From Hyphomicrobiales bacterium (GTDB lineage Bacteria > Pseudomonadota > Alphaproteobacteria > Rhizobiales > Rhizobiaceae): a stretch of DNA of 64,000 nt. Positions 111 through 16,185 of this stretch are shown one piece after another; the stretch's first letter is position 1, and every line of letters starts with the position of its first letter. The stretch is taken from contig UEIJ01000024.1 in the NCBI GenBank assembly GCA_900470195.1, forward strand, positions 1 through 64,000, read 5' to 3'. The notes under the pieces were generated by a model that was given only the letters and a program-made list of their open reading frames with translations, was not told where the DNA came from and ran no database searches. Both the position numbers and the translations under genes were made by a program.

Positions 111-905
111 CTATTTCCCTTTCCAGACAGGATCGCGCTTTTCGGCAAAAGCCCTCGCGCCTTCCAGATTGTCGTCTGATCCATAGAGAATATCGACCGT
201 CGCTAACTTTCGCCGCATGATGAGGTTCATCATGGTCTGGAAGTCCTCGCTTTCAGCACGACGAACGGTCTCTTTGATTGCGGCGTAAACGAGTGGAGGA
301 CCGGAGGCGAGCAACCGGGCGATTTCCCAAACGCGTTCTTCGAGCTTTTCTTGAGGCAGGACCTCGTTGACGAAACCCCAGCGATGAGCTTCGTGAGCGT
401 CGATCCAACGGCCGGTCAGCAAAAGTTCCATTGCAATGTGATATGGAATGCGTTTCGGAAGCCGGATACTTGCTGCGTCCGCAATGGTTCCGGAGCGTAT
501 TTCCGGGAGAGAAAAGGTAGAGTGGTCGGAGGCATAGATTAGGTCACAGGATAGTGCGAGTTCGAAGCCGCCGCCTGCGGCCATACCACTGACACAGGCA
601 ATGATCGGCTTGTTCAGGTCTCTCAGTTCTTGAATGCCACCAAATCCGCCAATTCCGTAATCGCCATCGATGGGCGCACCCTCTGCCGCGGCTTTCAAAT
701 CCCAACCGGCAGAAAAGAAACGGTCCCCCGCCGTTTTGAGGATGGCAACACGCAATTCCGGGTCGTCGCGGAAGGCTGCAAAGGTTTGTCCCATCGCGCG
801 CGATGTTGGCAGATCGATGGCGTTGGCTTTGGGCCGATCCAGCGTAACTTCCAGAATAGCGCCTTCCCGGAGGGTGGTTATAGCAGTTTCGGTCTTGTGG
901 CTCAT
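111..905 (-). CDS. Enoyl-CoA hydratase, CaiD (carnitinyl-CoA dehydratase)-like
   Basis: A crotonase-superfamily hydratase of 264 residues, close to the family's usual 260. It is strikingly like CaiD, which hydrates crotonobetainyl-CoA: the segments around residues 20-32 (TLDRPKANAID), 63-72 (FFSAGWDLKA) and the C-terminal EKRDPVWKGK match CaiD as recalled. The two crotonase glutamates are present (Glu115 in GGGFELAL, Glu135 in LPE). ATG at 905 is chosen over a TTG at 923 because GGAAAGG lies about 11 nt upstream and the start then falls just after the previous stop (908). It is the last gene of the operon. Activity on a CoA ester with a cationic gamma substituent is inferred from the CaiD resemblance; the substrate is unknown. 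Confidence 0.9.
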   Translation of the reverse strand: MSHKTETAITTLREGAILEVTLDRPKANAIDLPTSRAMGQTFAAFRDDPELRVAILKTAGDRFFSAGWDLKAAAEGAPIDGDYGIGGFGGIQELRDLNKPIIACVSGMAAGGGFELALSCDLIYASDHSTFSLPEIRSGTIADAASIRLPKRIPYHIAMELLLTGRWIDAHEAHRWGFVNEVLPQEKLEERVWEIARLLASGPPLVYAAIKETVRRAESEDFQTMMNLIMRRKLATVDILYGSDDNLEGARAFAEKRDPVWKGK

Positions 906-907
906 TT

Positions 908-1696
908 CTATCTGCCTTTCCAAACCGGCTCGCGTTTTTCCATGGCGGCACGGGGACCTTCCAGCGCGTCCTCGCTTTCGATCAGCGATTTGAACAATGG
1001 AAAAATACCAGCTCGCATGGCTGCGTAACTTTCGGCGAGGCTCATATGCTCGGCCATACGCGTTGTCTGTTTGGCTGCCGCTACAGAAAGCGGTGCGGAG
1101 CGCAGGATACGTGCAGCGAGTGCCCGGGCAGCGCTTAACAGCTCAGCCTGCGGCACAACTTCGTTGACCAGGCCCCAGCGTAGGCAGTCCTGCGCGCTGA
1201 AACGCCGGCCCCCATACAGAACCTCGTTTGCTATAACCTTGGGCAGGAGTTTTGGCAGAACAAACGACCCGATATCCGGCAGGACACCGAGCGAAGTTTC
1301 CGGCAGCCAGAATTGTGCGTGGTCGGCGGCGATTATGAAGTCGGCGGTCAGGAGAATTTCGAAGCCCGCGCCGATGGCATAGCCATTGACTGCGCAAATG
1401 ACCGGCTTTTCCAATCCGGGCAATTCGGAAAAGCCGTAGATTCCGCCCTGACCATAGTCAGCGATATACCCATCTCCGCCTGTTGCCGCAGCTTCGTTCA
1501 GATCCCACCCAGCGGAAAAAAACTTCTCGCCGCCGCCTGTGAAAATAGCAACGCGCAGATCCGGGTCGTCGCGAAACATGGCAAAAGCATCGCCGAGCTT
1601 TCGGCTGGTTGGCTGGTCGATGGCGTTAGCCTTAGGCCGGTCGAGAGTGATCTCCAATATCTGACCGTTGCGCACGGTCTTCACCTCGTCAGTCAT
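908..1696 (-). CDS. Second CaiD-like enoyl-CoA hydratase
   Basis: A 262-residue crotonase paralogous to its downstream neighbour and equally CaiD-like (TLDRPKANAID, KFFSAGWDL, EKREPVWKGR). Both active-site glutamates are kept (about Glu113 in AGFEILL and Glu133 in LPETSLG). The ATG at 1696 shares one base with the stop of the ligase gene (TGATG) and has AGGAGA about 7 nt upstream, so it is preferred to the TTG one codon earlier. Two hydratases in tandem suggest two steps, for example hydration and isomerisation or retro-aldol-type cleavage, or two stereochemistries. This is inference. Confidence 0.9.
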   Translation of the reverse strand: MTDEVKTVRNGQILEITLDRPKANAIDQPTSRKLGDAFAMFRDDPDLRVAIFTGGGEKFFSAGWDLNEAAATGGDGYIADYGQGGIYGFSELPGLEKPVICAVNGYAIGAGFEILLTADFIIAADHAQFWLPETSLGVLPDIGSFVLPKLLPKVIANEVLYGGRRFSAQDCLRWGLVNEVVPQAELLSAARALAARILRSAPLSVAAAKQTTRMAEHMSLAESYAAMRAGIFPLFKSLIESEDALEGPRAAMEKREPVWKGR

Positions 1697-3747
1697 CAAG
1701 CTCTCCTGTTGCGTATTAGGGCATCCACGGCGATGGCATTATCCGCTGTGACGATGAGGGGGTTGATATCGAGCTCCTCGAGTCTCCCTGCCTGTGCGAG
1801 CGCATAGTTGCCAACCAGCCATGCGGCCTCGACCGCGGCCTCGATATTGGCTTTTGACCTGCCGCGAAAGCCGGTCAGGAGGGTAGCGGAGCGTAGCGAA
1901 AGAAGCGCTTCACGAATTTCATCGCGGCTCGCGGGCAAAAGCAGGGCGCGTGTATCGTTCCAAAGCTCAACCATCACGCCGCCAGCGCCAATGGTCAGAT
2001 AGAGCCCGAATTGCGGGTCGCGCGCGATGCCGATAATCAGTTCAGCTACTCCGTCCTGAACCATTTTCTCGACCAGAAAATCGCAATTCAGGCGGGCAAG
2101 CGAATGGGCGGCAGTACGGACTGCTTCGGCATTCGCCAAATTCAGGCACACTGCAGCCATTTCCGTTTTGTGGAGCAATTTTTCTCCGACGCCCTTGAGA
2201 ACGACGGGGTAGTCGAGCTTTTCGGCAAGCGCGACAGCATCATCGACAGTTGATACCACACCGCCTGTTGGGGTTGTCAGGCCGATTTCACGCAAGGCCG
2301 ATTTCGATGACCACTCGTCCATTGCGGTGGCTGCGGATGGCAACGCTGGCGCTTGGTCAGCCAGCATTGAAAGTTGCGGTTGGGACCAGATTTTGCCAAT
2401 CCAGGCAGCATTGGCTGCCGCCGCCAGCGCCGTTGCAAGGCCCATCATCGGGGCTATTCCGGCTGCCATCAGACGTTCGGCATGAGTTTCCGTCATGTTC
2501 TCCGGCAGACTGGCGACCAATGCAAAACGCCCCCCTCCGGCTTTGTGCGCCGCGATCGCCGCCTCGAGCGATGTTTCGCAACCATTGTCAACGCAACGGT
2601 CCCCACGGGGAAAGTCGAGCACCAGTATGGACAGGCCGAAATTGCTATCGAGCATGGCGCGATAGGTCGCCGTGAGCGCCGGTCCATTCCCCCATGTAAA
2701 GGTGTGGTAGTCGAGCGGGTTCGAAATGGTGACCATTTCGGGCAGGGTGGCGCGAAGTTTCGTTGCCTCGTTAGCTGCAAGCGGTCGGAGATCGAGACCT
2801 GCCGCGTTCGCAAGGTCGCCGACGAGAGAGGCTTCGCCGCCCGAACAGCTCATCGAACCCAGAGTGTTGTCAGGCGAGGGGCCAAGCACATGAAGCAGCT
2901 TCAGCGTTTCGACAAATTCGTCGAGCGTTCTTACACGCACGACGCCGCATCGCGCGAAAAAGGCGTCGGCGAGCATGTCGGCTCCAGCGAGCGATGCCGT
3001 ATGCGAAAGGGTCATCGCCTGCGCTGCGGCAGACGTTCCGACTTTGATCGCGACAACGGGCTTTCTCATTTCACGCGCTTTGGCGAAGACACGTTCCAGC
3101 CGTGAAATATTATCGAAGCCTTCTATGTGCAGGCCAAGAACAGTGACCCGCGGGTCTTCGAGTGCGGCTTCCGCCAATTCGGAAAGACCGGTTTGCGCCT
3201 GATTTCCGGCTGTCAGCACATAGGCAATGGGAAGACCGCGGCGCTGCATCGTAAGATTGATAGCTATGTTGGATGACTGCACGACGATGGCAGCACCGCA
3301 TTCAACCCTTTTGCCGCCGTGCTGGTCAGGCCAAAGCAGAGCCCCGTCGAGGTAATTGATGAAGCCGTAGCAGTTGGGGCCGAGAATAGGCATTTCGCCT
3401 GCTGCCGCCAGCAGGGCTTGATTGCGTTCGGCGCCATCGGATACTTCATTGAAACCGGAGGCGAAACAGACCGCGCCGCCACTTCCCCGCGCTGAGAGTT
3501 GGCGGACAATATCGATTGTGCCGTCGCGGTTCACGCCGATAAAACTTACATCCGGTGCGCCGGGAAGGTCGGCGACAGATCGAAAGCAAGGAATATCGTC
3601 GATAGTGTCGCGGGAGGGATGGACCGGCCAGAGTTCTCCCTCAAAGCCCATTTTACGGCATTGCCTGAGCACAGCCGTGGACCAACCTCCGCCAAAGATG
3701 GCAATGGAACGGGGACGTAAAACACGAGACAGGTTCTTTTTGCTCAC
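1696..3747 (-). CDS. Acyl-CoA synthetase, ADP-forming (NDP-forming) type
   Basis: A 683-residue single-chain ligase of the acetyl-CoA synthetase (ADP-forming) superfamily. It has an N-terminal CoA-binding Rossmann domain (about 5-100, starting PRSIAIFGGG), a succinyl-CoA-ligase-like region with the phospho-histidine motif SHTASLAG (around residue 245), and a C-terminal ATP-grasp domain (about 470-683, with VVLKGVGEKLLHKTE). The family activates a carboxylic acid with CoA at the expense of ATP. It sits between an acyl-CoA dehydrogenase and two hydratases, so it probably activates the acid made by the upstream decarboxylation branch. It takes the place that CaiC (AMP-forming) or CaiB (transferase) has in carnitine operons. 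Three-nt spacing from the upstream gene indicates tight coupling. Confidence 0.87.
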   Translation of the reverse strand: MSKKNLSRVLRPRSIAIFGGGWSTAVLRQCRKMGFEGELWPVHPSRDTIDDIPCFRSVADLPGAPDVSFIGVNRDGTIDIVRQLSARGSGGAVCFASGFNEVSDGAERNQALLAAAGEMPILGPNCYGFINYLDGALLWPDQHGGKRVECGAAIVVQSSNIAINLTMQRRGLPIAYVLTAGNQAQTGLSELAEAALEDPRVTVLGLHIEGFDNISRLERVFAKAREMRKPVVAIKVGTSAAAQAMTLSHTASLAGADMLADAFFARCGVVRVRTLDEFVETLKLLHVLGPSPDNTLGSMSCSGGEASLVGDLANAAGLDLRPLAANEATKLRATLPEMVTISNPLDYHTFTWGNGPALTATYRAMLDSNFGLSILVLDFPRGDRCVDNGCETSLEAAIAAHKAGGGRFALVASLPENMTETHAERLMAAGIAPMMGLATALAAAANAAWIGKIWSQPQLSMLADQAPALPSAATAMDEWSSKSALREIGLTTPTGGVVSTVDDAVALAEKLDYPVVLKGVGEKLLHKTEMAAVCLNLANAEAVRTAAHSLARLNCDFLVEKMVQDGVAELIIGIARDPQFGLYLTIGAGGVMVELWNDTRALLLPASRDEIREALLSLRSATLLTGFRGRSKANIEAAVEAAWLVGNYALAQAGRLEELDINPLIVTADNAIAVDALIRNRRA

Positions 3748-3749
3748 AG

Positions 3750-4910
3750 TCAGGCTCCGAGCGGGCGAAGAAGGTCGCGGGCGATAATATGGCGCTGGAT
3801 CTCGCTCGTGCCGTCCCAGATCCGCTCGACACGGGCATCGCGCCAGAAGCGTTCCAGTGGGAGGTCGTCCATCAGGCCCATGCCTCCATGCACCTGGATG
3901 GCGCGGTCGGTGACGCGAGCCAGCATTTCGGATGCGTAGACTTTCGCTGAGGCAATTTCGCGATTTGCGGGCAATCCCTGATCAAGACGCCAGGCCGCTG
4001 CCAGTGTCAGCCAGTCCGCGGCATCGATTTCGGTGACGGAGTCGGCAAGTTGGAAACCGACGCCCTGAAAGCGGCCGATAGGCTGGCCAAATTGCTTACG
4101 CTGTGCGGCATAATCCACCATCATGTCGAACACGCGGCGCGCGCGCCCCACCGCCATTGTCGCAACCGTTATGCGGGTGGCGTAAAGCCACTCGTTCATG
4201 ACCGCAAAGCCGCCATCCACCTCTCCGAGAACCTGCGCATCCGGAACGCGGCAGTCGTCGAATTCGAGGATCATATTCTTGTAGCCGCGATGGCTGACGG
4301 ATCTGTAGCCCTCGCGGATGGTGAAGCCCGGTGTGTCACGGTCAACCAGAAAGGTCGTGATTTTCTTCTTGGTTCCGGCAGAGGATTGCTCTTCGCCGGT
4401 AGCCATGAAGACAATCACGAAATCGGCGTGTTCGGCGCCTGAAATGAAATGTTTGGTGCCGTTGAGTAGCCAATCTCCTCCATCGCGGCGTGCATTGGCC
4501 ATCATTCCGCGAATGTCGGAGCCAGCGTCAGGCTCGGTCATGGCGAGCGCATCCATCCTTTCGCCGCGCACCGCAGGCAGGAGATAGCGCTCAATCTGTT
4601 CGCCCTTGCAGGCCATGAGGATATTCTGCGGGCGTCCGAAAAAATGGGTGAGCGCCATCGACCCGCGCCCCAACTCACGCTCCACAAGCGCGAATTCGAG
4701 ATGGGAAAGCCCCGGTCCCCCCGCCGATTCCGGAAAATTGCTGGCATAGAAGCCGAGTTCGATCGTCTTGCGCTTGATTTCTTCGCCGATTTCGTGTGGC
4801 ACATGGCCGAGACGTTCGACGGTCGTTTCATGCGGATAAATCTCGTTCTCGACAAAGCTTCGAACTGTCGAGACGATCATTTCCTGTTCTTCAGTCAGTC
4901 CGAAATGCAT
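3750..4910 (-). CDS. Acyl-CoA dehydrogenase family protein
   Basis: A 386-residue FAD acyl-CoA dehydrogenase of normal family length, with an N-terminal helical domain, middle beta domain (AMTEPDAGSDIRG near 120) and C-terminal helical domain (QRKQFGQPIGRFQ, HGGMGLMDD). It would oxidise an acyl-CoA to the 2-enoyl-CoA used by the CaiD-like hydratases. At the usual catalytic position (YEGT in medium-chain enzymes) it has WDGT, so Asp366 replaces Glu. An alternative base at the isovaleryl-CoA-dehydrogenase position was not evident. GGGAGG sits about 8 nt before the ATG. A 37-nt gap separates it from the ThDP enzyme gene. Confidence 0.9.
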   Translation of the reverse strand: MHFGLTEEQEMIVSTVRSFVENEIYPHETTVERLGHVPHEIGEEIKRKTIELGFYASNFPESAGGPGLSHLEFALVERELGRGSMALTHFFGRPQNILMACKGEQIERYLLPAVRGERMDALAMTEPDAGSDIRGMMANARRDGGDWLLNGTKHFISGAEHADFVIVFMATGEEQSSAGTKKKITTFLVDRDTPGFTIREGYRSVSHRGYKNMILEFDDCRVPDAQVLGEVDGGFAVMNEWLYATRITVATMAVGRARRVFDMMVDYAAQRKQFGQPIGRFQGVGFQLADSVTEIDAADWLTLAAAWRLDQGLPANREIASAKVYASEMLARVTDRAIQVHGGMGLMDDLPLERFWRDARVERIWDGTSEIQRHIIARDLLRPLGA

Positions 4911-4947
4911 AGCGTTCCTCCCAGTCGCTTTGCCAGACCGTCCCGGC

Positions 4948-6597
4948 CTATGGCGTCGTTATTTCTAAGAGTGCGGGGCCCTCAATGGCATGGGCGCGGT
5001 GCAGTGCCCCGGCGAGTTGCGTCAGATCGAGTGCGCCTGGATGAAGCGCTTCCTGATTGTCTTCATTTGTCAGTCGAATGCGCTCGCCCGGTATTCCATA
5101 GGCCTGCGCGAGCTTGAGAAAATCGGGAGGTGTAGGGCGCACGCCCACCGGCTCGATACCCCGAGAAAGCATGTAATCTTCGATTTCCTGATAACCATCA
5201 TTGTTCCAGACGACGAAGATCACAGGCGCTTTTTCGTCTGCGGCAGTGCCGAGCGTGCCGAGACAGAACTGCAAACCTCCGTCTCCCACCAGGCAGACGA
5301 CCGGAGCGCCAGTTTGCGCGAGACTGGCCCCCACTGCAGCTGGAGGACCAAATCCGAGCGCGCCGTAACCCGTCGAAGCATTGAACCAGCTTCGTGCGCC
5401 ATCGGCATCGAAGAACAGGTTGCCGGCATAGGCGAGCTGTGTGGAATCTCCGATTAGGATACTGCCGGGCAGGGCATCCCGAATGGTGTCCAGGACTTCG
5501 GTCAAAGCCTGCATCTTGGGTGAAAGGAAGTTGTATGCCGCAGCCCTGGCCGTCGATGCGCGCTCCGTTCCATCCTCACGCCGTGCCTGGGCAAGAAGGT
5601 GGAGAGCAGAGATGAGTTCTGCGGTTATCCGGGCTGCATCGCCCACGAGCATCAGCGTGGCTGGATAGCTGGTTACTTCGGCCTCGGGGTCGATGTCGAT
5701 GCGGATCATTTTGGCAGGCGGCTCGAAGCCTCCATCCACATACATATCGTAATCGGTCGGGCCGAATTGGGTTCCTATCGCGATGACAAGATCGGCATCG
5801 GCGATCAGCTGGCGGATCGGCGGCAGGCTGGGGCTTGCCTGTACCGCAAGCGGATGGCGGCCCAGCAAACCACGGGCGTTCGTTGTGGTCACCACCGGGG
5901 CATCGAGCATCCGCGAGAGGTCGGAAATGGGGTTACTCGCCCAGTTGGCGCCTCCGCCGGCAAGAATCAAAGGGCGGCGGGCTTCGGCGCAAAGAGTTGC
6001 AGCGGCTTTGATTTTCCCGACGTTGGAATCCATGGTCGTGGGGGCTGTGCCTGCCGGAGACTTACGCAAGGCTCCTTCAAATCGGGCTTCCATAAGGTCC
6101 GTCGGGATTTCAATATGCACAGGGCCCGGACGTCCGGATTTCATCAGGGCGAAGGCACGGCCAACCAGTTCTGCAAGGTCGCCGGGCTGTTCCAGTCGTT
6201 CTGACGACAGAGCGATTGTTCGCATGGTCGCGGACTGGTCGGGAAGCTCGTGCAGGTGCCCCTGATATAGCCCGAGCGTGTGGCGCGCGTTGACGCCCGA
6301 AATGACCAGCATCGGTATGGAATCGGCCCGCGCCTGGGCCATCGGCGTGATGGCGTTGGTAAGCCCCGGACCGGTAATCAGCAGGCAGACACCGGGCTTG
6401 CCGGAAACCCGCGCGTAGCCATCTGCCATGAAGCCCGCATCCTGCTCGTCGCGCGGAGTTACATGCCGGATGCTCGATCCGGCCAGGCCCCGATAAAGTT
6501 CTGCTGTGTGCACGCCCGGAATACCAAATACGGTATCGACATCGTGGGCTTCCAGAAGGCGGATCAGCGCTTGCCCGACTGTTATTTCGCTGCTCAT
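4948..6597 (-). CDS. ThDP-dependent decarboxylase, AruI-like (5-guanidino-2-oxopentanoate decarboxylase)
   Basis: A 549-residue member of the acetolactate synthase/pyruvate decarboxylase superfamily with N-terminal Pyr (FGIPGVHT, cofactor Glu in DEQDAGFMADGYAR), central TPP-M and C-terminal PP domains (ThDP motif from VGDGG to VWNND). The resemblance to Pseudomonas AruI is specific: FGIPGVHT near the start, STQLAYAGN, ASTGYGALGFG and MLSRGIEPVGVRP all recur. AruI decarboxylates 2-ketoarginine to 4-guanidinobutyraldehyde. The ATG at 6597 overlaps the aminotransferase stop by 4 nt (ATGA). The tight link with an AruH-like aminotransferase supports a 2-oxo-acid from arginine or a relative. No aldehyde dehydrogenase is in the operon. 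Confidence 0.85.
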   Translation of the reverse strand: MSSEITVGQALIRLLEAHDVDTVFGIPGVHTAELYRGLAGSSIRHVTPRDEQDAGFMADGYARVSGKPGVCLLITGPGLTNAITPMAQARADSIPMLVISGVNARHTLGLYQGHLHELPDQSATMRTIALSSERLEQPGDLAELVGRAFALMKSGRPGPVHIEIPTDLMEARFEGALRKSPAGTAPTTMDSNVGKIKAAATLCAEARRPLILAGGGANWASNPISDLSRMLDAPVVTTTNARGLLGRHPLAVQASPSLPPIRQLIADADLVIAIGTQFGPTDYDMYVDGGFEPPAKMIRIDIDPEAEVTSYPATLMLVGDAARITAELISALHLLAQARREDGTERASTARAAAYNFLSPKMQALTEVLDTIRDALPGSILIGDSTQLAYAGNLFFDADGARSWFNASTGYGALGFGPPAAVGASLAQTGAPVVCLVGDGGLQFCLGTLGTAADEKAPVIFVVWNNDGYQEIEDYMLSRGIEPVGVRPTPPDFLKLAQAYGIPGERIRLTNEDNQEALHPGALDLTQLAGALHRAHAIEGPALLEITTP

Positions 6598-7790
6598 GAA
6601 ACCAGACTTTCGGCTCTGTAGTTGAGGCTGCGGGCAAAACGAGCAATGCGGTCGCATGCCTCGATAATGCTGTCTTCGGGAACGGTGACGCTCATGCGGA
6701 CCAGATTCTTCGCGACCTGACCGAAAGACGTTCCGGGCATCATCGAGACATAGTGTTCTTCAAGCAGCCGACTGGCGAATTCCTCACCATTGAGGCCTGT
6801 CCCGCCTATATCCAGCAGCACGAACATGCCCGCTTCCGGCATCAGGGGCTTGATCCCGGCAACGCCGCGTAGCCGGTCCACGATCAGCTCGGACCGCGCT
6901 TTGTACTGCGCGCGCATGATTGAAGCTGTCGGCAGATCATGTGTCAGCGCATAGGCTGCCATGTCGGCGATGAAAGGCTGTCCACCGAAGAGCATGGATT
7001 CGGAGAAGGGCAGCAATCTCTGGCAAAACTCCTCCGAACCCACCGCCCAGCCGGAGCGGAAGCCGGGGGCTGCGTGCGATTTGGATATGGACGAGACCAC
7101 GATGGTGCGATCAGCCATTTCCGGGAGATCGAGCGGCGAGGCAAATGCGGCGCCGAAAGTAAGCTCTTCATAGACCTCATCGCACACGATCCAGAGATCG
7201 TGTTTGCGGCACACTTCGCTAATGGCTGCTATCTCGGGTTTTGTCAGCACTGCGCCGGTCGGATTGTGAGGATTGTTGAGAAGTAAAGCGCGGCAGCCGG
7301 GCGTGATTGCTGCCTCCAGTGTGTCGGCTCGGAGATGAAAGCCATCTTCGGCCCGTAATGGTACCGGGACGATATCGGCCCCTGGCGCCCGTACGACGCC
7401 TTCATAAGTTGCGTAATAGGGATCGGGAACGAGAACCTTGTCGCCACTTTCGACCAGTCCTGTCAAAACGGCATAAAGTGCAGTTTGGGTTCCCGGGAAA
7501 TAAAGGACATTATTGGTCGTGATGGCGCGGCCGGTGCGTTTTGAGTATTTTGCTGCCAGTGCTGCCAACACAGCCGGTTCGCCGCGACCGTTGGAATAGC
7601 GGGTTCGACCGGCGCGCATGGCGTTATTGCACGCCTCCAGCAGTGAGGAATCAGGAGCTACATCAGGCTCGCCGATCGTGAATTCAATGACCGGGTGACC
7701 AAGCGCGCGCAATTCCCTGCCACGGGCATGGACCCGCCATTTGTCCGATCCCAATCCTGAGAGCCTGTCGGTGATGGAAGCATAATGCAT
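6594..7790 (-). CDS. Class I/II PLP aminotransferase, AruH-like (arginine:pyruvate type)
   Basis: A 398-residue fold-type I aminotransferase. PLP-site residues are visible: Asn174 in NNPHNPTGA, Asp204 in CDEVYEEL, Lys237 in SSISKSHA and Arg in GFRSGWAVG. It resembles AruH in LLNNPHNPTGA, DEVYEEL and the PEMADRTIVVSSISKSHA block. It would convert a basic amino acid to its 2-oxo acid for the ThDP enzyme encoded next. It starts 2 nt after the regulator stop. A general aspartate/tyrosine-type specificity cannot be excluded from sequence alone; the context decides for an arginine-like substrate. Confidence 0.85.
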   Translation of the reverse strand: MHYASITDRLSGLGSDKWRVHARGRELRALGHPVIEFTIGEPDVAPDSSLLEACNNAMRAGRTRYSNGRGEPAVLAALAAKYSKRTGRAITTNNVLYFPGTQTALYAVLTGLVESGDKVLVPDPYYATYEGVVRAPGADIVPVPLRAEDGFHLRADTLEAAITPGCRALLLNNPHNPTGAVLTKPEIAAISEVCRKHDLWIVCDEVYEELTFGAAFASPLDLPEMADRTIVVSSISKSHAAPGFRSGWAVGSEEFCQRLLPFSESMLFGGQPFIADMAAYALTHDLPTASIMRAQYKARSELIVDRLRGVAGIKPLMPEAGMFVLLDIGGTGLNGEEFASRLLEEHYVSMMPGTSFGQVAKNLVRMSVTVPEDSIIEACDRIARFARSLNYRAESLVS

Positions 7791-7791
7791 G

Positions 7792-8436
7792 TCAATTTCT
7801 CGGAAGTGGTGGCGCGGCGGGAAGCTCGATGCCGAGAAGAGCGCCGACTGAGCTTAGTCCGATGCCAATTTGCGTGGTTTCGTCGATTTCGTCCGCGCTG
7901 AGACAGCCTTCGATCCAAAGGCCATCAATTAGTGCGTTGACTGCGATGGCGAGGCTTCGGCAGGATTCCGGCGTGGGCTCCCGGCCTTCCGCCGACAATA
8001 CTTCCGCAATCAGGGTCTCCGTGGCGCGGCGGAAAGCGAGATAGCCTTCGCGATGTTCGTGCTCCAGATCCGGATCAAGATGGACCTGGCTGACGAAAGT
8101 CGCCCAGAGCGAAAGCATCCTCGGATCTGCCACGGCCCCGCCAAGGCTGGCAGCGATGAAACGCGTCAGTCGGTCGTGGGGCGTGCCGCCGTCCGATTCC
8201 AGAACGCTCAATGCGGGCAGGGTCATCATTTCGATCATCCGCTGGTATGCGGCGGCGATGAGGTTGGCCTTCGATGCAAAATGGTGACGGATCAACCCAT
8301 TGCTGACGCCTGCGCGCGCGGCAACGGCGCGAACCGTCGTTGCCTGAATTCCTAGATCGGCAATGCAATCGAGCGTAGCCTCTATCATGTCTGTGCGACG
8401 ATCGAAGTCCGGCGCACGTCGAAACGATGCGGTCAT
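7792..8436 (-). CDS. TetR-family regulator, BetI-like
   Basis: A 214-residue TetR repressor with an N-terminal helix-turn-helix (about 15-60; VAARAGVSNGLIRHHFASK) and a C-terminal ligand domain ending in the BetI-like ALIDGLWIEGCLS. The ATG at 8436 is preferred to the one at 8466 because GGAGGAGA lies 4-5 nt before it and because the longer form would run through the operator repeat. It is the first gene of the minus-strand operon, so it probably controls itself, the catabolic genes behind it and the divergent transporter operon through the inverted repeat at 8457-8495. BetI senses choline; here the ligand is more likely the cationic substrate of the cluster (inference). Confidence 0.88.
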   Translation of the reverse strand: MTASFRRAPDFDRRTDMIEATLDCIADLGIQATTVRAVAARAGVSNGLIRHHFASKANLIAAAYQRMIEMMTLPALSVLESDGGTPHDRLTRFIAASLGGAVADPRMLSLWATFVSQVHLDPDLEHEHREGYLAFRRATETLIAEVLSAEGREPTPESCRSLAIAVNALIDGLWIEGCLSADEIDETTQIGIGLSSVGALLGIELPAAPPLPRN

Positions 8437-8456
8437 CTTCTCCTCCCTCGATGTCT

Positions 8457-8495
8457 GACTATGCACTTGCGCAATACTTATTCAAGTGTATAGTC
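8457..8495. promoter_or_regulatory. Candidate TetR operator between divergent operons
   Basis: Two 13-bp arms, gactatgcacttg (8457-8469) and caagtgtatagtc (8483-8495), are reverse complements at 12 of 13 positions, with a 13-bp spacer. The site lies 20 bp before the regulator start and about 130 bp before the ABC ATPase start. It is the only strong symmetry in the divergent region. Confidence 0.65.
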
Positions 8496-8503
8496 AACGT
8501 CAA
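8475..8503 (-). promoter_or_regulatory. Candidate sigma-70-type promoter of the regulator operon
   Basis: Reading on the minus strand, TTGACG (8503-8498), a 17-bp spacer and TAAGTA (8480-8475). The -10 and the spacer lie within the inverted repeat, so a bound repressor would block it. Assigned by eye only. Confidence 0.45.
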
Positions 8504-8624
8504 GGGAACGGTTGGCCGCTTGTCGAGAAGTCGAAAAGAACTCCGAAGTGGCTGATAAGAAAGCAATATCCAGACGGCTTGCGACAAACTCAAGGGTGGG
8601 CAGGCCAAGGGAGGTTCGTGCCGC

Positions 8625-9398
8625 ATGAGTCAGGGCGAAGAGGCGATCTCCGTCGTCGACCTTCATAAGCGTTTCGGTGATCTCGAGGTGCTTAAAGGCG
8701 TTTCACTCAGGGCGCGCGAGGGCGATGTTATCGCCATTATTGGCGGATCGGGCTCCGGCAAATCGACATTTCTTCGTTGCATCAACATGCTGGAGCTGCC
8801 AACGTCGGGGGCGGTCACCATCCATGGTGAAACCATCGCCATGAGAAATACCGGCAATGGCAGTCAGATACCCGCGGACAGAAGGCAGATCGAGCGTATT
8901 CGCACGCGGCTGGGAATGGTTTTCCAGAGCTTCAATCTCTGGCAACATATGACCGTTCTGGAAAATGTGATCGAAGCGCCTGTGCATGTGCTGGGCGTGC
9001 CGAAAGCCGAAGCGATAGATCGGGCCGAAGCTCTTCTAAAGCGCGTCGGGCTTTATGAGAAGCGAGACGTCTATCCCGCGTTCATGTCCGGTGGCCAGCA
9101 GCAGCGTGCCGCGATTGCGCGGGCGCTGGCGATAGAGCCGTTGGTGATGCTTTTCGACGAGCCGACATCCGCGCTCGACCCTGAACTGGTCGGCGAGGTT
9201 CTCACTGTTATCGGCGATTTGGCCCGGGAAAAACGCACGATGATTCTGGTTACGCATGAGATGAAATTTGCGCGTAAGGTCGCCAGTCACATCGTTTTTC
9301 TGCACGATGGCAAGATTGAGGAAGAGGGGCCCCCCGAAGAAGTCTTCGGATCGCCCAAATCCGAGCGACTGAAAAAGTTTATCAGTTCAACACACTGA
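8625..9398 (+). CDS. Polar amino acid ABC transporter, ATP-binding protein
   Basis: A 257-residue HisP/GlnQ-type ATPase: Walker A GGSGSGKST (about 40-48), Q-loop FQSFNLW, signature MSGGQQQR (Met in place of the usual Leu), Walker B VMLFDEPTSALDP and switch His in THEMKFA. It energises the two permeases encoded downstream. GGGAGG lies about 12 nt upstream of the ATG. It is first in a plus-strand operon divergent from the TetR regulator. Because the second importer set (13843-17013) has no ATPase gene, this protein could serve it too (inference). Confidence 0.93.
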   Translation: MSQGEEAISVVDLHKRFGDLEVLKGVSLRAREGDVIAIIGGSGSGKSTFLRCINMLELPTSGAVTIHGETIAMRNTGNGSQIPADRRQIERIRTRLGMVFQSFNLWQHMTVLENVIEAPVHVLGVPKAEAIDRAEALLKRVGLYEKRDVYPAFMSGGQQQRAAIARALAIEPLVMLFDEPTSALDPELVGEVLTVIGDLAREKRTMILVTHEMKFARKVASHIVFLHDGKIEEEGPPEEVFGSPKSERLKKFISSTH

Positions 9399-9419
9399 AA
9401 TGGGAATGGAGGAGTACCA

Positions 9420-10202
9420 ATGAAGTGTCTTTTAGCTAGTCTGTGCGTCGGTGTAACATTGGCTGTTGCGGGTGTTGCGGCGGCGAATGCCGAACAGGTG
9501 AAACTCGGTATCGCAGCCGAACCTTATCCGCCCTTCACGGAACCTGACGCCACGGGCAAATGGCACGGCTGGGAAATCGATTTTGCAGATGCCGTCTGCA
9601 AAGAGGCCAAGCTTGATTGCGTGATAACGCCTGTCGCCTGGGATGGCATCATCCCCGCGCTCACCACCGGCAAGATCGACATGATCGTCGGCTCAATGTC
9701 GATGACGCCTGAACGTCTCAAGACGATCGATTTCTCCGACAAATATTATAATACGCCGACGATCGTCATCGGCACCAAGGATCTCAAGTTCGACGCGACG
9801 CCGGAGGGATTGAAGGACAAGACGATTGGCGTGCAGGTTTCTACCATCCATCAGGCTTACGCGATGAAGCACTTCGCGCCAGCCGGTGTCACGATCAAGG
9901 AATATCAGACGCAGGACGAAGCCAACAACGACCTCACCGCCGGGCGCATCGACGCCGTGCAGGCGGATTCCCTGGCTCTGCGGACCTTCCTTGCGACGGA
10001 TAACGGCAAGGCATGCTGCGAGGAAAAGGGCATCGTCGCTCAGGATGTCGAGGTTCTGGGGCCGGGGGTGGGCATCGGATTGCGCAAGGGCGATACGGAG
10101 CTGAAAGACAAGCTGAACGCGGCGATCAAGGCCATCCGTTCCAACGGAACCTATGACACATTCACGAAAAAATATTTCGACTTTGACATTTACGGCCAGT
10201 GA
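9420..10202 (+). CDS. Family 3 periplasmic binding protein (Lys/Arg/Orn/His type)
   Basis: A 260-residue solute-binding protein with a Sec signal peptide (about 1-24, ending AANA before EQVKLG). Family 3 features follow: AAEPYPPFTEPD, GWEIDFADAVCKEA and the ligand motif SMSMTPERLKTIDFSDKYY. The Cys pair in CKEAKLDC recalls the disulfide in ArgT/HisJ-type proteins, which supports a basic amino acid ligand. GGAGGAG precedes the ATG. It captures the substrate in the periplasm for the ATPase and the two permeases around it. Confidence 0.92.
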   Translation: MKCLLASLCVGVTLAVAGVAAANAEQVKLGIAAEPYPPFTEPDATGKWHGWEIDFADAVCKEAKLDCVITPVAWDGIIPALTTGKIDMIVGSMSMTPERLKTIDFSDKYYNTPTIVIGTKDLKFDATPEGLKDKTIGVQVSTIHQAYAMKHFAPAGVTIKEYQTQDEANNDLTAGRIDAVQADSLALRTFLATDNGKACCEEKGIVAQDVEVLGPGVGIGLRKGDTELKDKLNAAIKAIRSNGTYDTFTKKYFDFDIYGQ

Positions 10203-10212
10203 ACGTCAGCAG

Positions 10213-10235
10213 CCAGCCGGCGTCCTGTCGGCTGG
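10213..10235 (+). other. Stem-loop after the binding-protein gene
   Basis: ccagccg (10213-10219) pairs with cggctgg (10229-10235) around a 9-nt loop, 10 nt after the stop codon. There is no T-run, so it is more likely an mRNA-stabilising or partial-stop element that lets the binding protein outnumber the permeases. Confidence 0.5.
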
Positions 10236-10266
10236 TCCCCTGATTTCAGCATGAACGGAACCGGCG

Positions 10267-10989
10267 ATGGATGCACCATTGATCAACTGGAGCCTGCTTG
10301 CGCTCAATCCGCCGGGATGGGGCGGGGTGCTTCTGCAGGGCTTCTGGCACACGCTGCAAATTGCCGTTGGTGGTTATTCGCTCGGTCTGTTGATTGGCAT
10401 GTTCGGTGCGTTGGGCAAGCTCTATGGCGGCCCGATCATTCGCGATCTGCTGGAAGTTTATACCACAGTCGTGCGCGCCGTGCCGGAACTGGTGCTGATC
10501 CTTATCCTCTATTACGCGGGCACCGATCTGTTGAACCAGTTGTTGGCGCTGTTTGGCCATGGCAAAGTGGATATCAGCGGGCTTGCGGCTGGCATTTTCG
10601 TCATCGGTGTCGTGCAGGGCGCATATTCGACGGAAGTTCTGCGCGGTGCGATCAAAGCCATCGCGCCCGGCCAGATCGAGGCGGCGCGTGCATTCGGCAT
10701 GCCGCCGTCCAAGATGCTCAGACGCATCACGATACCGGCCATGCTGCCCTTCGCCATACCGGGTCTTGCCAATCTTTGGCTTATCTCAACCAAGGATACA
10801 GCTCTTCTGGCGGTCGTCGGCTTCAGCGAATTGACGCTTGTGACAAGGCAGGCAGCCGGGACAACCAAGCATTATCTGCTGTTCTTCATGGCGGCTGGTG
10901 TGCTCTACCTCGGCCTCACACTGATTTCGAACGCCTTCATCGGCATTATCGAGCGCCGTGCGCGCCGTGGTTTTGCGCGGATCGACTGA
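10267..10989 (+). CDS. Polar amino acid ABC transporter permease (HisQ/ArtQ-like)
   Basis: A 240-residue membrane protein with about five hydrophobic segments and the EAA loop (GQIEAARAFGMPPSKMLRRI, about 138-157) that contacts the ATPase. RAVPELVLILILYY near 70 is typical of HisQ-type permeases. It pairs with the next gene, which begins 2 nt after its stop. The longer frame at 10251-10994 is out of phase with the domain and is not a gene. Confidence 0.92.
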   Translation: MDAPLINWSLLALNPPGWGGVLLQGFWHTLQIAVGGYSLGLLIGMFGALGKLYGGPIIRDLLEVYTTVVRAVPELVLILILYYAGTDLLNQLLALFGHGKVDISGLAAGIFVIGVVQGAYSTEVLRGAIKAIAPGQIEAARAFGMPPSKMLRRITIPAMLPFAIPGLANLWLISTKDTALLAVVGFSELTLVTRQAAGTTKHYLLFFMAAGVLYLGLTLISNAFIGIIERRARRGFARID

Positions 10990-10990
10990 G

Positions 10991-11794
10991 ATGAGCATAG
11001 CAGTACTGGAAAATCAGACGTCCGTCAGAAACTGGCTCGAACCGCACCGGCTTGTGCTGATTGTCATCGCAATCGCGTTGGTTGCTTCGGCGGTGATATT
11101 TGGTCGCTGGGAGTGGCTGCCGCAATACCTGCCCCGCCTGGGTTCCGGCATCGTGGTAACTCTGTTCATGCTGTTCGGGTCTGCGGTTCTGGGATTTATG
11201 CTTGCACTGCCGCTCGGGCTGCTCCAGGTGACTGGCCCATGGTGGTTGCGGTGGCCAGCGAAGGCGTTCTGCACCGTTATCCGGGGAACACCGTTGCTGC
11301 TGCAGCTGTGGCTGCTCTACTATGGCCTTGGTTCGCTGTTTCCCTCCATTCCCGGCATTCGGGGCTCTTTTATCTGGCCTTATCTGCGCGAGGCATGGCC
11401 ATATGGACTTGCCGCGCTGACGATCTCTTTCGCGGCCTATGAGGGGGAGGTCATGCGCGGCGCGTTTGCCGGCGTGCCGTCTGGCGAGCTGCAGGCCGGC
11501 CGCGCTTTTGGCATGTCCCCCTGGAAAGTGTTTCGCCGTATCTGGCTGCCGCGCGCCATCCATCGCGCCTTGCCCACGCTGAACGGCGAAACGGTTCTGC
11601 AATTGAAATCGACCCCGCTGGTGGCGACGATCACCGTTGTTGACGTCTATGGCGTCGTTTCGCGGGTACGCCAGGAAACCTATCTCACTTATGAGCCGCT
11701 TCTGCTGCTGGCCCTGATCTACATGATATTGACCGCGGGTCTGGTCCTGGTCTTCCGGCGTCTTGAGAACCGAATTCCGACAAGAGGTGCTTGA
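10991..11794 (+). CDS. Polar amino acid ABC transporter permease (HisM/ArtM-like)
   Basis: A 267-residue permease with an N-terminal extension of about 55 residues including one hydrophobic segment, then the conserved core: RGTPLLLQLWLLYYG, and the EAA loop GELQAGRAFGMSPWKVFRRI. ATG 10991 is chosen over an upstream frame start inside the preceding gene. The stop (TGA, 11792-11794) abuts the ATG of the amidohydrolase at 11795, so the transporter and hydrolase are translationally coupled. It forms the second half of the heterodimeric channel. Confidence 0.92.
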   Translation: MSIAVLENQTSVRNWLEPHRLVLIVIAIALVASAVIFGRWEWLPQYLPRLGSGIVVTLFMLFGSAVLGFMLALPLGLLQVTGPWWLRWPAKAFCTVIRGTPLLLQLWLLYYGLGSLFPSIPGIRGSFIWPYLREAWPYGLAALTISFAAYEGEVMRGAFAGVPSGELQAGRAFGMSPWKVFRRIWLPRAIHRALPTLNGETVLQLKSTPLVATITVVDVYGVVSRVRQETYLTYEPLLLLALIYMILTAGLVLVFRRLENRIPTRGA

Positions 11795-12967
11795 ATGCGC
11801 GATTTTTCACCCACTATTCTCAATAGCCTGCCCGAGTTGACGGCATTGCGGCACGACCTTCATGCCCACCCTGAACTGGGACTTGAGGAGAAACGGACCT
11901 CCGAGATCGTTGCGCGGCAGCTTGAAGCTCTGGGGTACAAGGTCACGCGAGGACTTGCGAAAACCGGGATCGTCGGCACTTTGACGAACGGATCAAGCCG
12001 CAAGTCCATCGGCATTCGTGCTGATATCGATGCGCTTCCCATTCATGAGCAGACAAATTTGCCCTATTCCAGCAAGTCTCCGGGTCTGATGCATGCCTGC
12101 GGACATGATGGCCATACGACCATGTTGCTCGGTGCTGCCAAGGCTTTGGCGGAACGCCGTAATTTCGACGGAACCATTCATCTGATTTTCCAGCCCGCTG
12201 AAGAAAACTTCGGCGGCGCCAAGATCATGATAGACGAAGGCCTGTTCGACCGGTTCCCCTGTGATGCTGTTTTTGCTCTTCACAACGATCCCGGCATTCC
12301 GCTTGGCAAATTTGCCTTCCGCGATGGGCCGATCATGGCCGCGGTCGATGAGGCTATTATAAGGGTGAACGGTTACGGGGGACACGGCTCGGAGCCGGAA
12401 AAGACCGCCGATCCGATAACGGCGGGCGCATCGATTGTGATGGCCCTGCAGACCATCAAGTCGCGTAACGTGCCGGCGCTCGACCCCGCAGTTGTGACCG
12501 TTGCCGCATTCCATGGCGGTTCAGCCAGTAACATCATTCCATCGACCGCAGAAATCGTCGTCGGTATTCGCACTTTTTCGCCCACCATCCGCGATCAGAT
12601 CGAACAGCGGATCAAGCGTGTTGCAGCGCATCAGGCGGAGAGCTTCGGACTAACTGCTGAAGTGGAGTATCTGCGCAGTTACGACGCAACGATCAATCAC
12701 AGTGCAGAAACAGATTTTGCACGTACTCTGGCCATCAAGTCGTTTGGCGCGACGAACGTGATTGATCTGGAGCGTCCTTTCATGGGCAGTGAGGATTTCG
12801 CCTATATGCTCGTTGAGCGACCCGGAACCTACTTCTTTGTGGGAGGAGGCAGGGGAGAGAACGATTTTCAGCTCCATCATCCCTCTTATGATTTCAATGA
12901 CGACCTGATTCCCATCGGCGCGGCCTTCTGGACCGAGCTTGCTGAAACCTACCTTAAATCTGAGTGA
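11795..12967 (+). CDS. M20 family amidohydrolase (hippurate hydrolase/N-acyl-amino-acid type)
   Basis: A 390-residue M20D metallohydrolase. The metal-binding core is clear: GIRADIDALPIHEQT, HACGHDGHTTML and FQPAEENFGGAK. The dimerisation domain follows, and a C-terminal metal His near the end (HHPSYDFNDD). Relatives hydrolyse amide bonds of N-acyl amino acids in the cytoplasm. Coupling to a basic-amino-acid importer and a DDAH-type enzyme suggests it removes an acyl or similar group from an arginine derivative (inference). Confidence 0.9.
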   Translation: MRDFSPTILNSLPELTALRHDLHAHPELGLEEKRTSEIVARQLEALGYKVTRGLAKTGIVGTLTNGSSRKSIGIRADIDALPIHEQTNLPYSSKSPGLMHACGHDGHTTMLLGAAKALAERRNFDGTIHLIFQPAEENFGGAKIMIDEGLFDRFPCDAVFALHNDPGIPLGKFAFRDGPIMAAVDEAIIRVNGYGGHGSEPEKTADPITAGASIVMALQTIKSRNVPALDPAVVTVAAFHGGSASNIIPSTAEIVVGIRTFSPTIRDQIEQRIKRVAAHQAESFGLTAEVEYLRSYDATINHSAETDFARTLAIKSFGATNVIDLERPFMGSEDFAYMLVERPGTYFFVGGGRGENDFQLHHPSYDFNDDLIPIGAAFWTELAETYLKSE

Positions 12968-12971
12968 TCCC

Positions 12972-13757
12972 ATGGCAGCCGTATATGAATTCAATGCAGC
13001 TATCGTCCGCACGCCGGGACGATCCGTCGTCAATGGTTTGCGTGCCGATGACAGGGGCAATCCGACCTATGAGGGCGTCAAGGAAGAGCACGAAGCCTAT
13101 GTAGAAGCGTTGCGGAACGCAGGTGTCGACGTGACCGTTCTTCCGCCGATGGAGGATTTTCCGGATTCGATATTTGTAGAAGACCCGGCGCTGGTGTTTC
13201 ACGAAGGAGCAGTTCTGTTGCGCCCAGGCGCACCATCGCGCATGGGCGAAACGGCTGAAATCGAACCGGTTCTGCGTTCCCTTTTCGAGAGGGTCGTGCC
13301 GCTTCCTTCATCGGGATTCGCCGATGGCGGGGACGTTCTGGTTACATCATCGACAGTGATGATCGGCCTGTCGGCGCGTACCGATAAAAGCGGCGCCGAG
13401 GGACTTCGTGCGGCGCTGGCCACCCTCGGTCGCGCCGCGGAAATCGTCGAGACACCGAAGGGCGTGCTGCATTTCAAGACCGATTGCTCACTGCTGGACG
13501 AAGAGACAGTGCTTGCAACGCACAGGCTGGCGGGTTCCGGTTTCTTTCGGGGTATGCGCGAAATTGTGACGCCGGAGGGTGAAGAGGCGGCGGCCAACGC
13601 GCTCAGGGTCAACGATGTCGTATTCGTCGGTGCGGATTATCCCCGCACAATCGATCTGCTGGATAAAGAGGGATACAAGGTCGTCGCCTTGAGGACCGGG
13701 GAAATCGGTCGGATCGATGCCGGTCTGTCGTGCATGTCGCTCAGGTGGCGACGGTAA
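12972..13757 (+). CDS. Dimethylarginine dimethylaminohydrolase (DDAH)-family guanidine hydrolase
   Basis: A 261-residue pentein-fold hydrolase. Family hallmarks are all present: RTPGRSVVNGL near the start, FPDSIFVEDPALV (63-75), FADGGDVL (116-123), His167 in GVLHFKT and the nucleophile Cys254 in LSCMSLRW. DDAH turns asymmetric dimethylarginine or monomethylarginine into citrulline plus an amine. ATG 12972 lies 4 nt after the amidohydrolase stop. It is the last gene of the importer operon and ends 23 nt before a terminator. Other guanidine substrates are possible, since bacterial members are not all characterised. Confidence 0.9.
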   Translation: MAAVYEFNAAIVRTPGRSVVNGLRADDRGNPTYEGVKEEHEAYVEALRNAGVDVTVLPPMEDFPDSIFVEDPALVFHEGAVLLRPGAPSRMGETAEIEPVLRSLFERVVPLPSSGFADGGDVLVTSSTVMIGLSARTDKSGAEGLRAALATLGRAAEIVETPKGVLHFKTDCSLLDEETVLATHRLAGSGFFRGMREIVTPEGEEAAANALRVNDVVFVGADYPRTIDLLDKEGYKVVALRTGEIGRIDAGLSCMSLRWRR

Positions 13758-14814: not shown

Positions 14815-14827
14815 ATTCTCTCCCCTG

Positions 14828-16111: not shown

Positions 16112-16137
16112 GGTAACACCACAATAAGCATATCGCA

Positions 16138-16160
16138 TGAGCCATCGTTACGATGGCTCA
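16138..16160 (-). other. Stem-loop between binding-protein and oxidase genes
   Basis: A perfect 10-bp inverted repeat (16138-16147 and 16151-16160) with a 3-nt loop, 26 nt after the binding-protein stop and just before the oxidase start. There is no T-run. It is likely a processing or stability element setting a high binding-protein level. Confidence 0.55.
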
Positions 16161-16185
16161 CGACAATATTGATGTAAAAGGCAGG

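What the first reader, a model, noticed from the sequence alone, without database searches (positions are those of the whole stretch)
111..13757. Divergent regulon that looks like an undescribed route for arginine-like compounds, combining transaminase/decarboxylase, DDAH and CoA-ester chemistry
Seen: an AruH-like aminotransferase and AruI-like decarboxylase overlap by 4 nt, and the same operon continues with an acyl-CoA dehydrogenase, an ADP-forming-type CoA ligase and two CaiD-like hydratases. The divergent arm holds a basic-amino-acid importer, an M20 amidohydrolase and a DDAH. Known: AruH/AruI take arginine to 4-guanidinobutyraldehyde; in Pseudomonas the chain then goes through guanidinobutyrate to GABA by guanidinobutyrase, without CoA. 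Here neither guanidinobutyrase nor an aldehyde dehydrogenase is in the unit. Inference: a methylated or acylated arginine enters, is trimmed by M20/DDAH or transaminated, and the resulting acid is degraded as a CoA ester.
Basis: partly seen in the sequence, partly recalled or inferred. Interest (0 to 1): 0.8.

Follow-up and report, generated by a model that had tools for sequence, protein, structure and literature searches.

The report
Arginine regulon wired to carnitine-type β-oxidation
A bacterial gene unit that takes up arginine-like compounds and strips them to a four-carbon acid carries, in the same operon, enzymes related to those that burn the carnitine precursor gamma-butyrobetaine, which suggests an untested way of breaking such amino acids down.

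Summary
Window 111-13757 holds two divergent arms around a TetR gene and a 41-bp palindrome found once in the genome. Left arm: TetR, aminotransferase, AruI-type ThDP decarboxylase, acyl-CoA dehydrogenase, NDP-forming CoA ligase, two CaiD-like hydratases. Right arm: basic-amino-acid importer, M20, DDAH.

The CoA genes are identifiable. Elsewhere the same ligase-dehydrogenase-hydratase set stands in gamma-butyrobetaine/carnitine operons beside carnitine 3-dehydrogenase and BKACE. The link to AruI-type genes recurs: in the window's family the two lie within 20 kb in 15 of 105 genomes holding both (5 of 41 genera, about 0.3 expected), and also in Paracoccus, Sulfitobacter and another family of the order.

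Only in the window's lineage has the ligase lost an aromatic residue kept in 74 of 81 sequences, near the onium-binding segment of DddX. I read this as a substrate shift, most likely to 4-guanidinobutyrate. Gene content and linkage are shown; substrates are inferred. The aminotransferase-decarboxylase pair is already studied in S. meliloti (PMC7268258, passages).

The parts
111..905 (-). ECH1, carnitinyl-CoA dehydratase-like hydratase (open frame from 923)
   Evidence: Nests among hydratases of carnitine operons; differs from their conserved columns in 2 of 108
908..1696 (-). ECH2, diverged CaiD-like hydratase
   Evidence: Best NCBIfam model crotonobetainyl-CoA hydratase, below cut-off; differs in 22 of 108 conserved columns
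1696..3747 (-). ACS, NDP-forming acyl-CoA ligase of the carnitine-operon type; Cys at position 390 in place of an aromatic residue
3750..4910 (-). ACD, acyl-CoA dehydrogenase of the carnitine-operon type
   Evidence: 56-82% identical to dehydrogenases next to carnitine 3-dehydrogenase
4948..6597 (-). TPP, AruI-type ThDP-dependent 2-oxo acid decarboxylase
   Evidence: NF005712 712 bits, cut-off 500; start ATG overlaps the AT stop
6594..7790 (-). AT, class I PLP aminotransferase, AruH-like
   Evidence: Pfam Aminotran_1_2; 66% identical over the aligned part to the S. meliloti homologue in the same gene order (L126)
7792..8436 (-). TetR-family regulator of the BetI-like group
   Evidence: TetR_N and TetR_C_6; BetI models below cut-off
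8456..8496 (.). 41-bp palindromic presumed operator between the arms
   Evidence: 14-nt arms, 93% complementary; recognisable in Brucella group, Paracoccus and, more weakly, Antarcticirhabdus; single site in the genome at up to 3 mismatches
8625..9398 (+). ABC importer ATPase
   Evidence: ABC_tran
9420..10202 (+). Substrate-binding protein, lysine/arginine/ornithine type
   Evidence: TIGR01096 238 bits, cut-off 256
10267..10989 (+). ABC importer permease A
   Evidence: Open frame and conserved synteny; not scanned against family libraries
10991..11794 (+). ABC importer permease B
   Evidence: Open frame and conserved synteny; not scanned against family libraries
11795..12967 (+). M20 amidohydrolase
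   Evidence: TIGR01891 373 bits, cut-off 154
12972..13757 (+). DDAH-like methylarginine hydrolase
   Evidence: Best solved relative a DDAH (3rhy), E 3e-53; Cys, His and ligand positions kept, Glu114 is Asp (residue roles recalled)

Best explanation
It is a locally controlled uptake-and-degradation unit for arginine and Nω-methylated arginines in which the arginine transaminase route is continued by β-oxidation enzymes taken over from gamma-butyrobetaine/carnitine degradation. Proposed steps: import; M20 and DDAH trim part of the substrates (DDAH would give citrulline and methylamines); the aminotransferase makes the 2-oxo acid; the ThDP enzyme makes 4-guanidinobutyraldehyde; an aldehyde dehydrogenase encoded elsewhere makes 4-guanidinobutyrate; the ligase makes the CoA ester; the dehydrogenase makes 4-guanidinocrotonyl-CoA; a hydratase makes 3-hydroxy-4-guanidinobutyryl-CoA. 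Downstream, the unlinked carnitine 3-dehydrogenase and BKACE could give acetoacetate and guanidinoacetate. Shown: gene content, operon order, conserved linkage, kinship of the CoA module, change in the ligase. Inferred: every substrate and product, the aldehyde step, and everything after the hydratase.
For: AruI model passed. In S. meliloti the equivalent pair acts on arginine and related 2-oxo acids (PMC7268258, passages). The ligase-dehydrogenase-hydratase set equals that of carnitine operons; S. meliloti BcoAB was used elsewhere as a gamma-butyrobetaine:CoA ligase (PMC8364193 passage). AruI-type decarboxylase and the module's dehydrogenase lie within 20 kb in 15 of 105 family genomes with both; without the window's own genus 4 of 40 genera. 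Paracoccus methylarcula has one string with carnitine 3-dehydrogenase and BKACE; Sulfitobacter has the two units side by side; 5 of 5 ligase-bearing g53 genomes of another family have AT, TPP, ACD, ACS, ECH together. An aldehyde dehydrogenase lies beside the decarboxylase in 3 of 3 g161 genomes and 1 of 2 g148 genomes viewed. The ligase lost the aromatic residue only in the window's lineage. Two hydratases in one module were seen only in that lineage among the window-type module loci, and one of them is diverged. DDAH ligand positions are kept.
Against: No enzyme was assayed. The window-type module is the only copy found in this genome, while carnitine 3-dehydrogenase and BKACE stand on another contig without one, so the module may still serve gamma-butyrobetaine. 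ECH1 has hardly changed from carnitine hydratases. In the g144, g148 and g161 loci viewed and in Sulfitobacter the carnitine operon has a GlxA-type regulator gene of its own and an aromatic residue in the ligase, so neighbourhood there need not mean one pathway. The operator is absent near the genome's carnitine genes. The g53 ligases keep an aromatic residue (Phe). The register of position 390 against DddX is uncertain. An arginase-family gene beside an OCD-like frame (my reading) suggests that plain arginine can be used another way.
Confidence: 0.47

Rival explanations
1. The module still makes carnitine or a homologue. The aminotransferase and decarboxylase act on a trimethylated basic amino acid (δ-trimethylornithine giving gamma-butyrobetaine, or trimethyllysine giving δ-valerobetaine), and the CoA genes plus the distant carnitine 3-dehydrogenase and BKACE finish it.
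For: Kinship of the module; ECH1 nearly unchanged; carnitine 3-dehydrogenase present in the genome; full set in one string in Paracoccus; δ-valerobetaine is described as microbiome-derived (PMC11773067, abstract start in listing). A longer chain could also explain the smaller residue at ligase position 390 (inference).
Against: DDAH and the AruI model point to guanidino amino acids; the ligase lost the aromatic residue otherwise kept; trimethylornithine is not a common nutrient (recalled).
Confidence: 0.2
2. Citrulline branch: DDAH makes citrulline from methylarginines, and aminotransferase, decarboxylase and ligase then handle the ureido compounds (4-ureidobutyrate).
For: A DDAH or other arginine-deiminase-fold enzyme accompanies 34 of 53 AruI loci; an uncharged head group would explain loss of the cation-binding aromatic residue.
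Against: In the S. meliloti passages read, the listed AspC substrates are arginine, agmatine, ornithine and putrescine, not citrulline, although citrulline was in the assay mixture.
Confidence: 0.12
3. Two separate nutrient pathways share one promoter: arginine goes to 4-guanidinobutyrate, and independently scavenged gamma-butyrobetaine or a similar acid is handled by the CoA module. There is no chemical continuity.
For: In several genera the carnitine operon is a neighbour with its own GlxA-type regulator gene; both nutrient types could come from the same biomass (inference).
Against: In the window the module stands without the GlxA-type gene and transporter that accompany it elsewhere and follows the decarboxylase by 37 bp; the ligase and ECH2 changed in this lineage; the coupling also exists in g53.
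Confidence: 0.17

Closest known systems
Arginine transaminase pathway, AruH/AruI (P. aeruginosa) and AspC/IlvB1 (S. meliloti, PMC7268258, passages)
   Same: Aminotransferase-decarboxylase pair; in the S. meliloti locus L126 also importer, M20 and TetR in the same order
   Different: Here ligase, dehydrogenase and two hydratases follow in the same operon, and a DDAH is in the other arm
Gamma-butyrobetaine to carnitine to glycine betaine operon of rhizobia (bco/cdh; Bazire 2019, not held, known to me by recall and by mentions)
   Same: Homologous ligase, acyl-CoA dehydrogenase and carnitinyl-CoA dehydratase
   Different: Carnitine 3-dehydrogenase and BKACE are not in the unit; ligase residue 390 is Cys instead of aromatic; extra hydratase; TetR instead of GlxA-type regulator gene
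DddX, ATP-dependent DMSP lyase (PMC8163506, passages)
   Same: Nearest solved relative of the ligase (7cm9, E 7e-61); the phosphorylated His292 is kept
   Different: Trp391 and the Glu432/Phe435 segment are not kept
4-Guanidinobutanoyl-CoA as proposed starter unit of marginolactone antibiotics (PMC4737276, abstract start in listing)
   Same: The same CoA ester has been proposed as a natural intermediate; its origin from arginine is recalled
   Different: Biosynthetic use, no β-oxidation

Membership tests
AruH/AruI arginine transaminase pathway | AruI-type decarboxylase above curated cut-off | tested here: met
   712 bits, cut-off 500
AruH/AruI arginine transaminase pathway | Arginine-specific aminotransferase next to it | tested here: inconclusive
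   Adjacent and overlapping, but no model among the hits is specific for AruH; best model GntC below cut-off
AruH/AruI arginine transaminase pathway | Guanidinobutyrase or aldehyde dehydrogenase in the unit | tested here: not met
   None seen in the unit; two ureohydrolase-family genes elsewhere; aldehyde dehydrogenase candidate on C56, 66% to the decarboxylase-adjacent one of G260
AruH/AruI arginine transaminase pathway | Activity on arginine and 2-ketoarginine | not testable with these tools
   Needs enzyme assay
Gamma-butyrobetaine/carnitine operon | Ligase-dehydrogenase-hydratase set of this type | tested here: met
Gamma-butyrobetaine/carnitine operon | Carnitine 3-dehydrogenase and BKACE in the same unit | tested here: not met
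   They lie on contig C20
Gamma-butyrobetaine/carnitine operon | Aromatic residue at ligase position 390 | tested here: not met
   Cys here; aromatic in 74 of 81. This criterion is my own, not an established one
DDAH | Curated family cut-off | tested here: not met
   212 bits, cut-off 450
DDAH | Catalytic Cys and His, ligand residues | tested here: met
   Kept in the alignment to 3rhy; Glu114 replaced by Asp; the role of each residue is recalled
DddX DMSP lyase | Trp391, Glu432 and Phe435 | tested here: not met
   His at the Trp391 position, segment around 432-435 different
M20 amidohydrolase (TIGR01891) | Curated cut-off | tested here: met
   373 bits, cut-off 154
BetI regulator | Curated cut-off | tested here: not met
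   100 bits, cut-off 201; second model 95, cut-off 118

The most novel reading that the evidence does not exclude
A β-oxidative arginine pathway: arginine or methylarginine is turned into 4-guanidinobutyrate and then degraded as the guanidino analogue of the gamma-butyrobetaine-carnitine route (4-guanidinobutyryl-CoA, 4-guanidinocrotonyl-CoA, 'guanidino-carnitine', finally guanidinoacetate and acetoacetate), built by capture of a carnitine module and loss of the ligase's quaternary-ammonium cage.
Probability: 0.35. Interest if true: 0.75.

Novelty: new variant of a known kind. Interest (0 to 1): 0.6.

Why it matters
The arginine routes I know of (recalled) remove or hydrolyse the guanidino group by arginase, deiminase, agmatinase or guanidinobutyrase. 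A route that keeps the guanidino group on and burns the carbon chain as a CoA ester would be a different strategy. It could suit methylated guanidino acids that ureohydrolases may not split (inference). It would also show how an operon for carnitine precursors was re-tooled. The ligase residue gives a single-enzyme test, and orthologues are in environmental bacteria.

Tried and rejected
1. I first read the ligase change as Trp to Gly in both aminotransferase-linked lineages (and a note). A better alignment gave Cys/Ser in the window's lineage and Phe in g53, so a convergent loss of the aromatic residue is rejected; it is a single-lineage loss. The one shared changed column in the ligase is no more than chance (p 0.23). 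Three shared changed columns in the dehydrogenase (p 0.003) and eight in ECH2 (p 0.04) are suggestive only.

2. I looked for further regulon members through the operator and found only the divergent promoter, so the missing aldehyde dehydrogenase was not found that way. The half-site was also not found in the 20-kb stretches around the carnitine genes of the own genome and of Antarcticirhabdus. One weak half-site at window 31030 (3 mismatches) is within chance.

3. A second module on contig C14 was considered as the gamma-butyrobetaine module. Its ligase is a different type (38% identical) and it has its own ThDP enzyme and transporter, so I left it out.

4. The four f89/g242 ligase hits without Trp, and the C14 ligase itself, are of the C14 type and were dropped from the count of 81. 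Some of the 81 are two reads of one gene (for example L104 and L179) or close relatives.

5. In the tally of 53 loci I left out L106 (a 10.9-kb contig, same genome as L083) and L112, L121, L123 (short). Its 12.5-kb limit misses the CoA genes of L237, L238, L241 and L243. Loci L095-L099 are further AruI copies without the importer. The loci were partly chosen because they hold the module, so the better figure is 15 of 105 (recounted).

6. The null for co-location assumes random gene positions and treats genera as independent; it is crude. The 15 includes the window's own genus (3 genomes); 12 of 102 genomes and 4 of 40 genera remain without it. Positions were compared by hand from the listings; the list is capped, and for G418 only one of three dehydrogenase places is shown. 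I viewed the gene order in 7 of the 10 genomes of g144, g148 and g161, not in G333, G343 and G405 (of G405 only the stretch around the decarboxylase).

7. Literature: no paper on degradative 4-guanidinobutyryl-CoA was found (11 papers, listing only; they concern antibiotic biosynthesis or unrelated uses as far as the listing shows). Searches (no paper) gave nothing on this unit. Bazire 2019 is not held.

8. Structure prediction and fold search were not used: they give no coordinates to map the ligase residue.


Full report
WHAT IS THERE. The window is the first 64 kb of contig C43 of a 5.15-Mb genome. The nearest named relatives of its decarboxylase are Brucella/Ochrobactrum species (B. pseudintermedia 89%, B. 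tritici 84%, Ochrobactrum sp. 82%, B. cytisi 81%, B. daejeonensis 78%). The left arm reads TetR (7792-8436), aminotransferase AT (6594-7790), ThDP decarboxylase TPP (4948-6597), acyl-CoA dehydrogenase ACD (3750-4910), NDP-forming CoA ligase ACS (1696-3747), hydratases ECH2 (908-1696) and ECH1 (111-905). AT and TPP overlap by ATGA. The right arm reads ABC importer (8625-11794), M20 amidohydrolase (11795-12967), DDAH (12972-13757). Family scores are: TPP passes the AruI model and M20 its family model; most other names are below curated cut-offs and stand as resemblances.

CONTROL. Between the arms lies a palindrome, TGACTATGCACTTG-N13-CAAGTGTATAGTCA (8456-8496). It is kept in the Brucella group; in Paracoccus, and more weakly in Antarcticirhabdus, it is the recognisable part of an otherwise diverged spacer. 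A pattern from it, with up to 3 mismatches, occurs once in the whole genome. So TetR most likely controls this unit alone.

WHAT THE CoA GENES ARE. Some modules stand without the two carnitine genes, as in Ruegeria pomeroyi and L032. The R. acidisoli carnitine 3-dehydrogenase passes its curated model. A paper on gut bacteria used S. meliloti BcoAB as gamma-butyrobetaine:CoA ligase (PMC8364193, passages), and another cites the S. meliloti carnitine work of Bazire 2019 (PMC12482172, passages); that the module equals the published bco genes is my recall plus gene context. Against carnitine-linked copies the window's ACD is 56-82% identical, ECH1 mostly 60-80%, ACS 42-54%. In trees the window's ACS and ACD fall among carnitine-linked ones, and the aminotransferase-linked label needs 3 changes on the ACS tree and 2 on the ACD tree. 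ECH1 nests among carnitine-operon hydratases and differs from them in 2 of 108 conserved columns; ECH2 in 22 of 108.

THE LINK IS REAL. In the window's family (297 genomes searched) 111 have the decarboxylase (E 1e-120 or better), 156 the dehydrogenase (E 1e-135 or better), 105 both. In 15 of these 105 the two lie within 20 kb on one contig: 5 with direct linkage (genera g1 and g198), 2 at about 10 kb (g148), 4 at 10-11 kb (g144), 4 at 17-18 kb (g161). That is 5 of 41 genera against 0.3 expected for random positions (p 2e-5; a crude null); without the window's genus it is 4 of 40. In the other 90 genomes with both, no such linkage was seen in the listing. In the 7 genomes of g144, g148 and g161 that I viewed, the carnitine operon (BKACE, carnitine 3-dehydrogenase, ACD, ACS, ECH1) lies beside importer, in most an arginine-deiminase-fold enzyme, TetR, AT and TPP, with a peptide-type transporter between in g161. 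In 3 of 3 g161 genomes and 1 of 2 g148 genomes viewed an aldehyde dehydrogenase lies next to TPP. Outside the family: Paracoccus methylarcula has carnitine 3-dehydrogenase, BKACE, ECH1, ACS, ACD, DDAH and importer in one direction, divergent from TetR, AT, TPP; Sulfitobacter sp. W027 has gabT, DDAH, TPP, AT, TetR, importer and the carnitine operon side by side; the 5 ligase-bearing g53 genomes of family f50 have AT, TPP, ACD, ACS, ECH in one direction (g53 genomes without a ligase, if any, were not listed). In Antarcticirhabdus the AT-TPP-ACD-ACS-ECH2-ECH1 operon stands apart, and the importer lies near BKACE and carnitine 3-dehydrogenase. Each of the 10 genomes with the coupled unit has one such dehydrogenase at E 1e-100 or better; of 3 same-genus genomes without the unit, two have only a C14-type enzyme (46-47%) and one none. 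In the own genome, carnitine 3-dehydrogenase and BKACE sit on C20 without a module.

WHAT MAY HAVE CHANGED. The closest solved relative of the ligase is DddX (7cm9), where docking and mutants point to Trp391 and Phe435 as cation-pi partners of the sulfonium and Glu432 as base (PMC8163506, passages). The window's position 390 lies in the segment that aligns with 432-435 (the exact register is uncertain). Over 81 ligases of this type (some are two reads of one gene) the residue is Trp in 62, Tyr in 7, Phe in 5, Cys in 5 and Ser in 2. All seven non-aromatic ones belong to the window's lineage (Brucella group and Aurantimonadaceae). Paracoccus, whose module still stands with carnitine 3-dehydrogenase, keeps Trp. 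I take this as a hint that the window's ligase no longer serves a quaternary ammonium acid; a longer betaine or a ureido acid are also possible.

MECHANISM. In S. meliloti AspC transaminates arginine, agmatine, ornithine and putrescine, and IlvB1 decarboxylates 5-amino-2-oxopentanoate seven times better than it does the arginine product (PMC7268258, passages). The DDAH keeps Cys, His and the ligand positions of the solved DDAH, with Asp for Glu114 (residue roles recalled). Together these suggest import of arginine-type compounds, conversion to a four-carbon aldehyde and acid, and activation of that acid by the captured module. 4-Guanidinobutyrate is the simplest candidate: like gamma-butyrobetaine it is a butyrate with a positive charge at C4. 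An aldehyde dehydrogenase is needed; the genome has one 66% identical to the decarboxylase-adjacent enzyme of G260, unlinked. What follows the hydratases is open; the genome's carnitine 3-dehydrogenase and BKACE could act, which I did not test.

WHAT SPEAKS AGAINST. No substrate is shown. The module could still serve gamma-butyrobetaine: it is the only one found in the genome and ECH1 is nearly unchanged. In the co-located genera viewed the carnitine operon has its own GlxA-type regulator gene and an aromatic ligase residue. Many AruI loci lack the CoA genes (38 of 53 without ACD and ACS within 12.5 kb), and two have a ureohydrolase near the decarboxylase (L099, L112), so guanidinobutyrase-type ends may exist as well; a ureohydrolase also lies near the Antarcticirhabdus unit.

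KNOWN OR NEW. Both halves are known kinds. Their union in one operon was not found in print in my searches (open-access library only, listings). I call it a new variant of a known kind.

Noticed in passing
own genome contig C14, locus L050 1-13826: A second, more distant module: 3-hydroxyacyl-CoA dehydrogenase, PRK07586-type ThDP enzyme, CoA ligase, TetR, acyl-CoA dehydrogenase, two hydratases, Pot-like ABC transporter and a FabK/nitronate monooxygenase-like gene on a 16-kb contig (some names by eye). Its substrate is unknown.
   Followed up: partly
window 13843-17055: FAD-dependent oxidoreductase weakly like L-pipecolate oxidase (158 bits, cut-off 600) with a permease and a cystine/basic amino acid binding protein, next to the unit and kept in B. 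pseudintermedia.
   Followed up: partly
L110 7257-8135 and 24 of 53 AruI loci: A 292-residue arginine-deiminase-fold enzyme without an NCBIfam match at 1e-40 (L110 copy tested) stands beside importer and TetR in rhizobial AruH/AruI loci, apparently in place of DDAH.
   Followed up: partly
L099 8347-9249; L112 7651-8433: Ureohydrolase-like gene near an AruI-type decarboxylase: a possible alternative end of the pathway.
   Followed up: no
L120: In B. cytisi several genes of the unit give only partial or shifted hits, as if broken or misassembled.
   Followed up: no
CP090106.1 (S. meliloti Ak57): A 3.7-Mb record labelled pSymB holds the AT-TPP locus and the carnitine operon; its size suggests a chromosome filed under a plasmid name (normal sizes recalled).
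   Followed up: no
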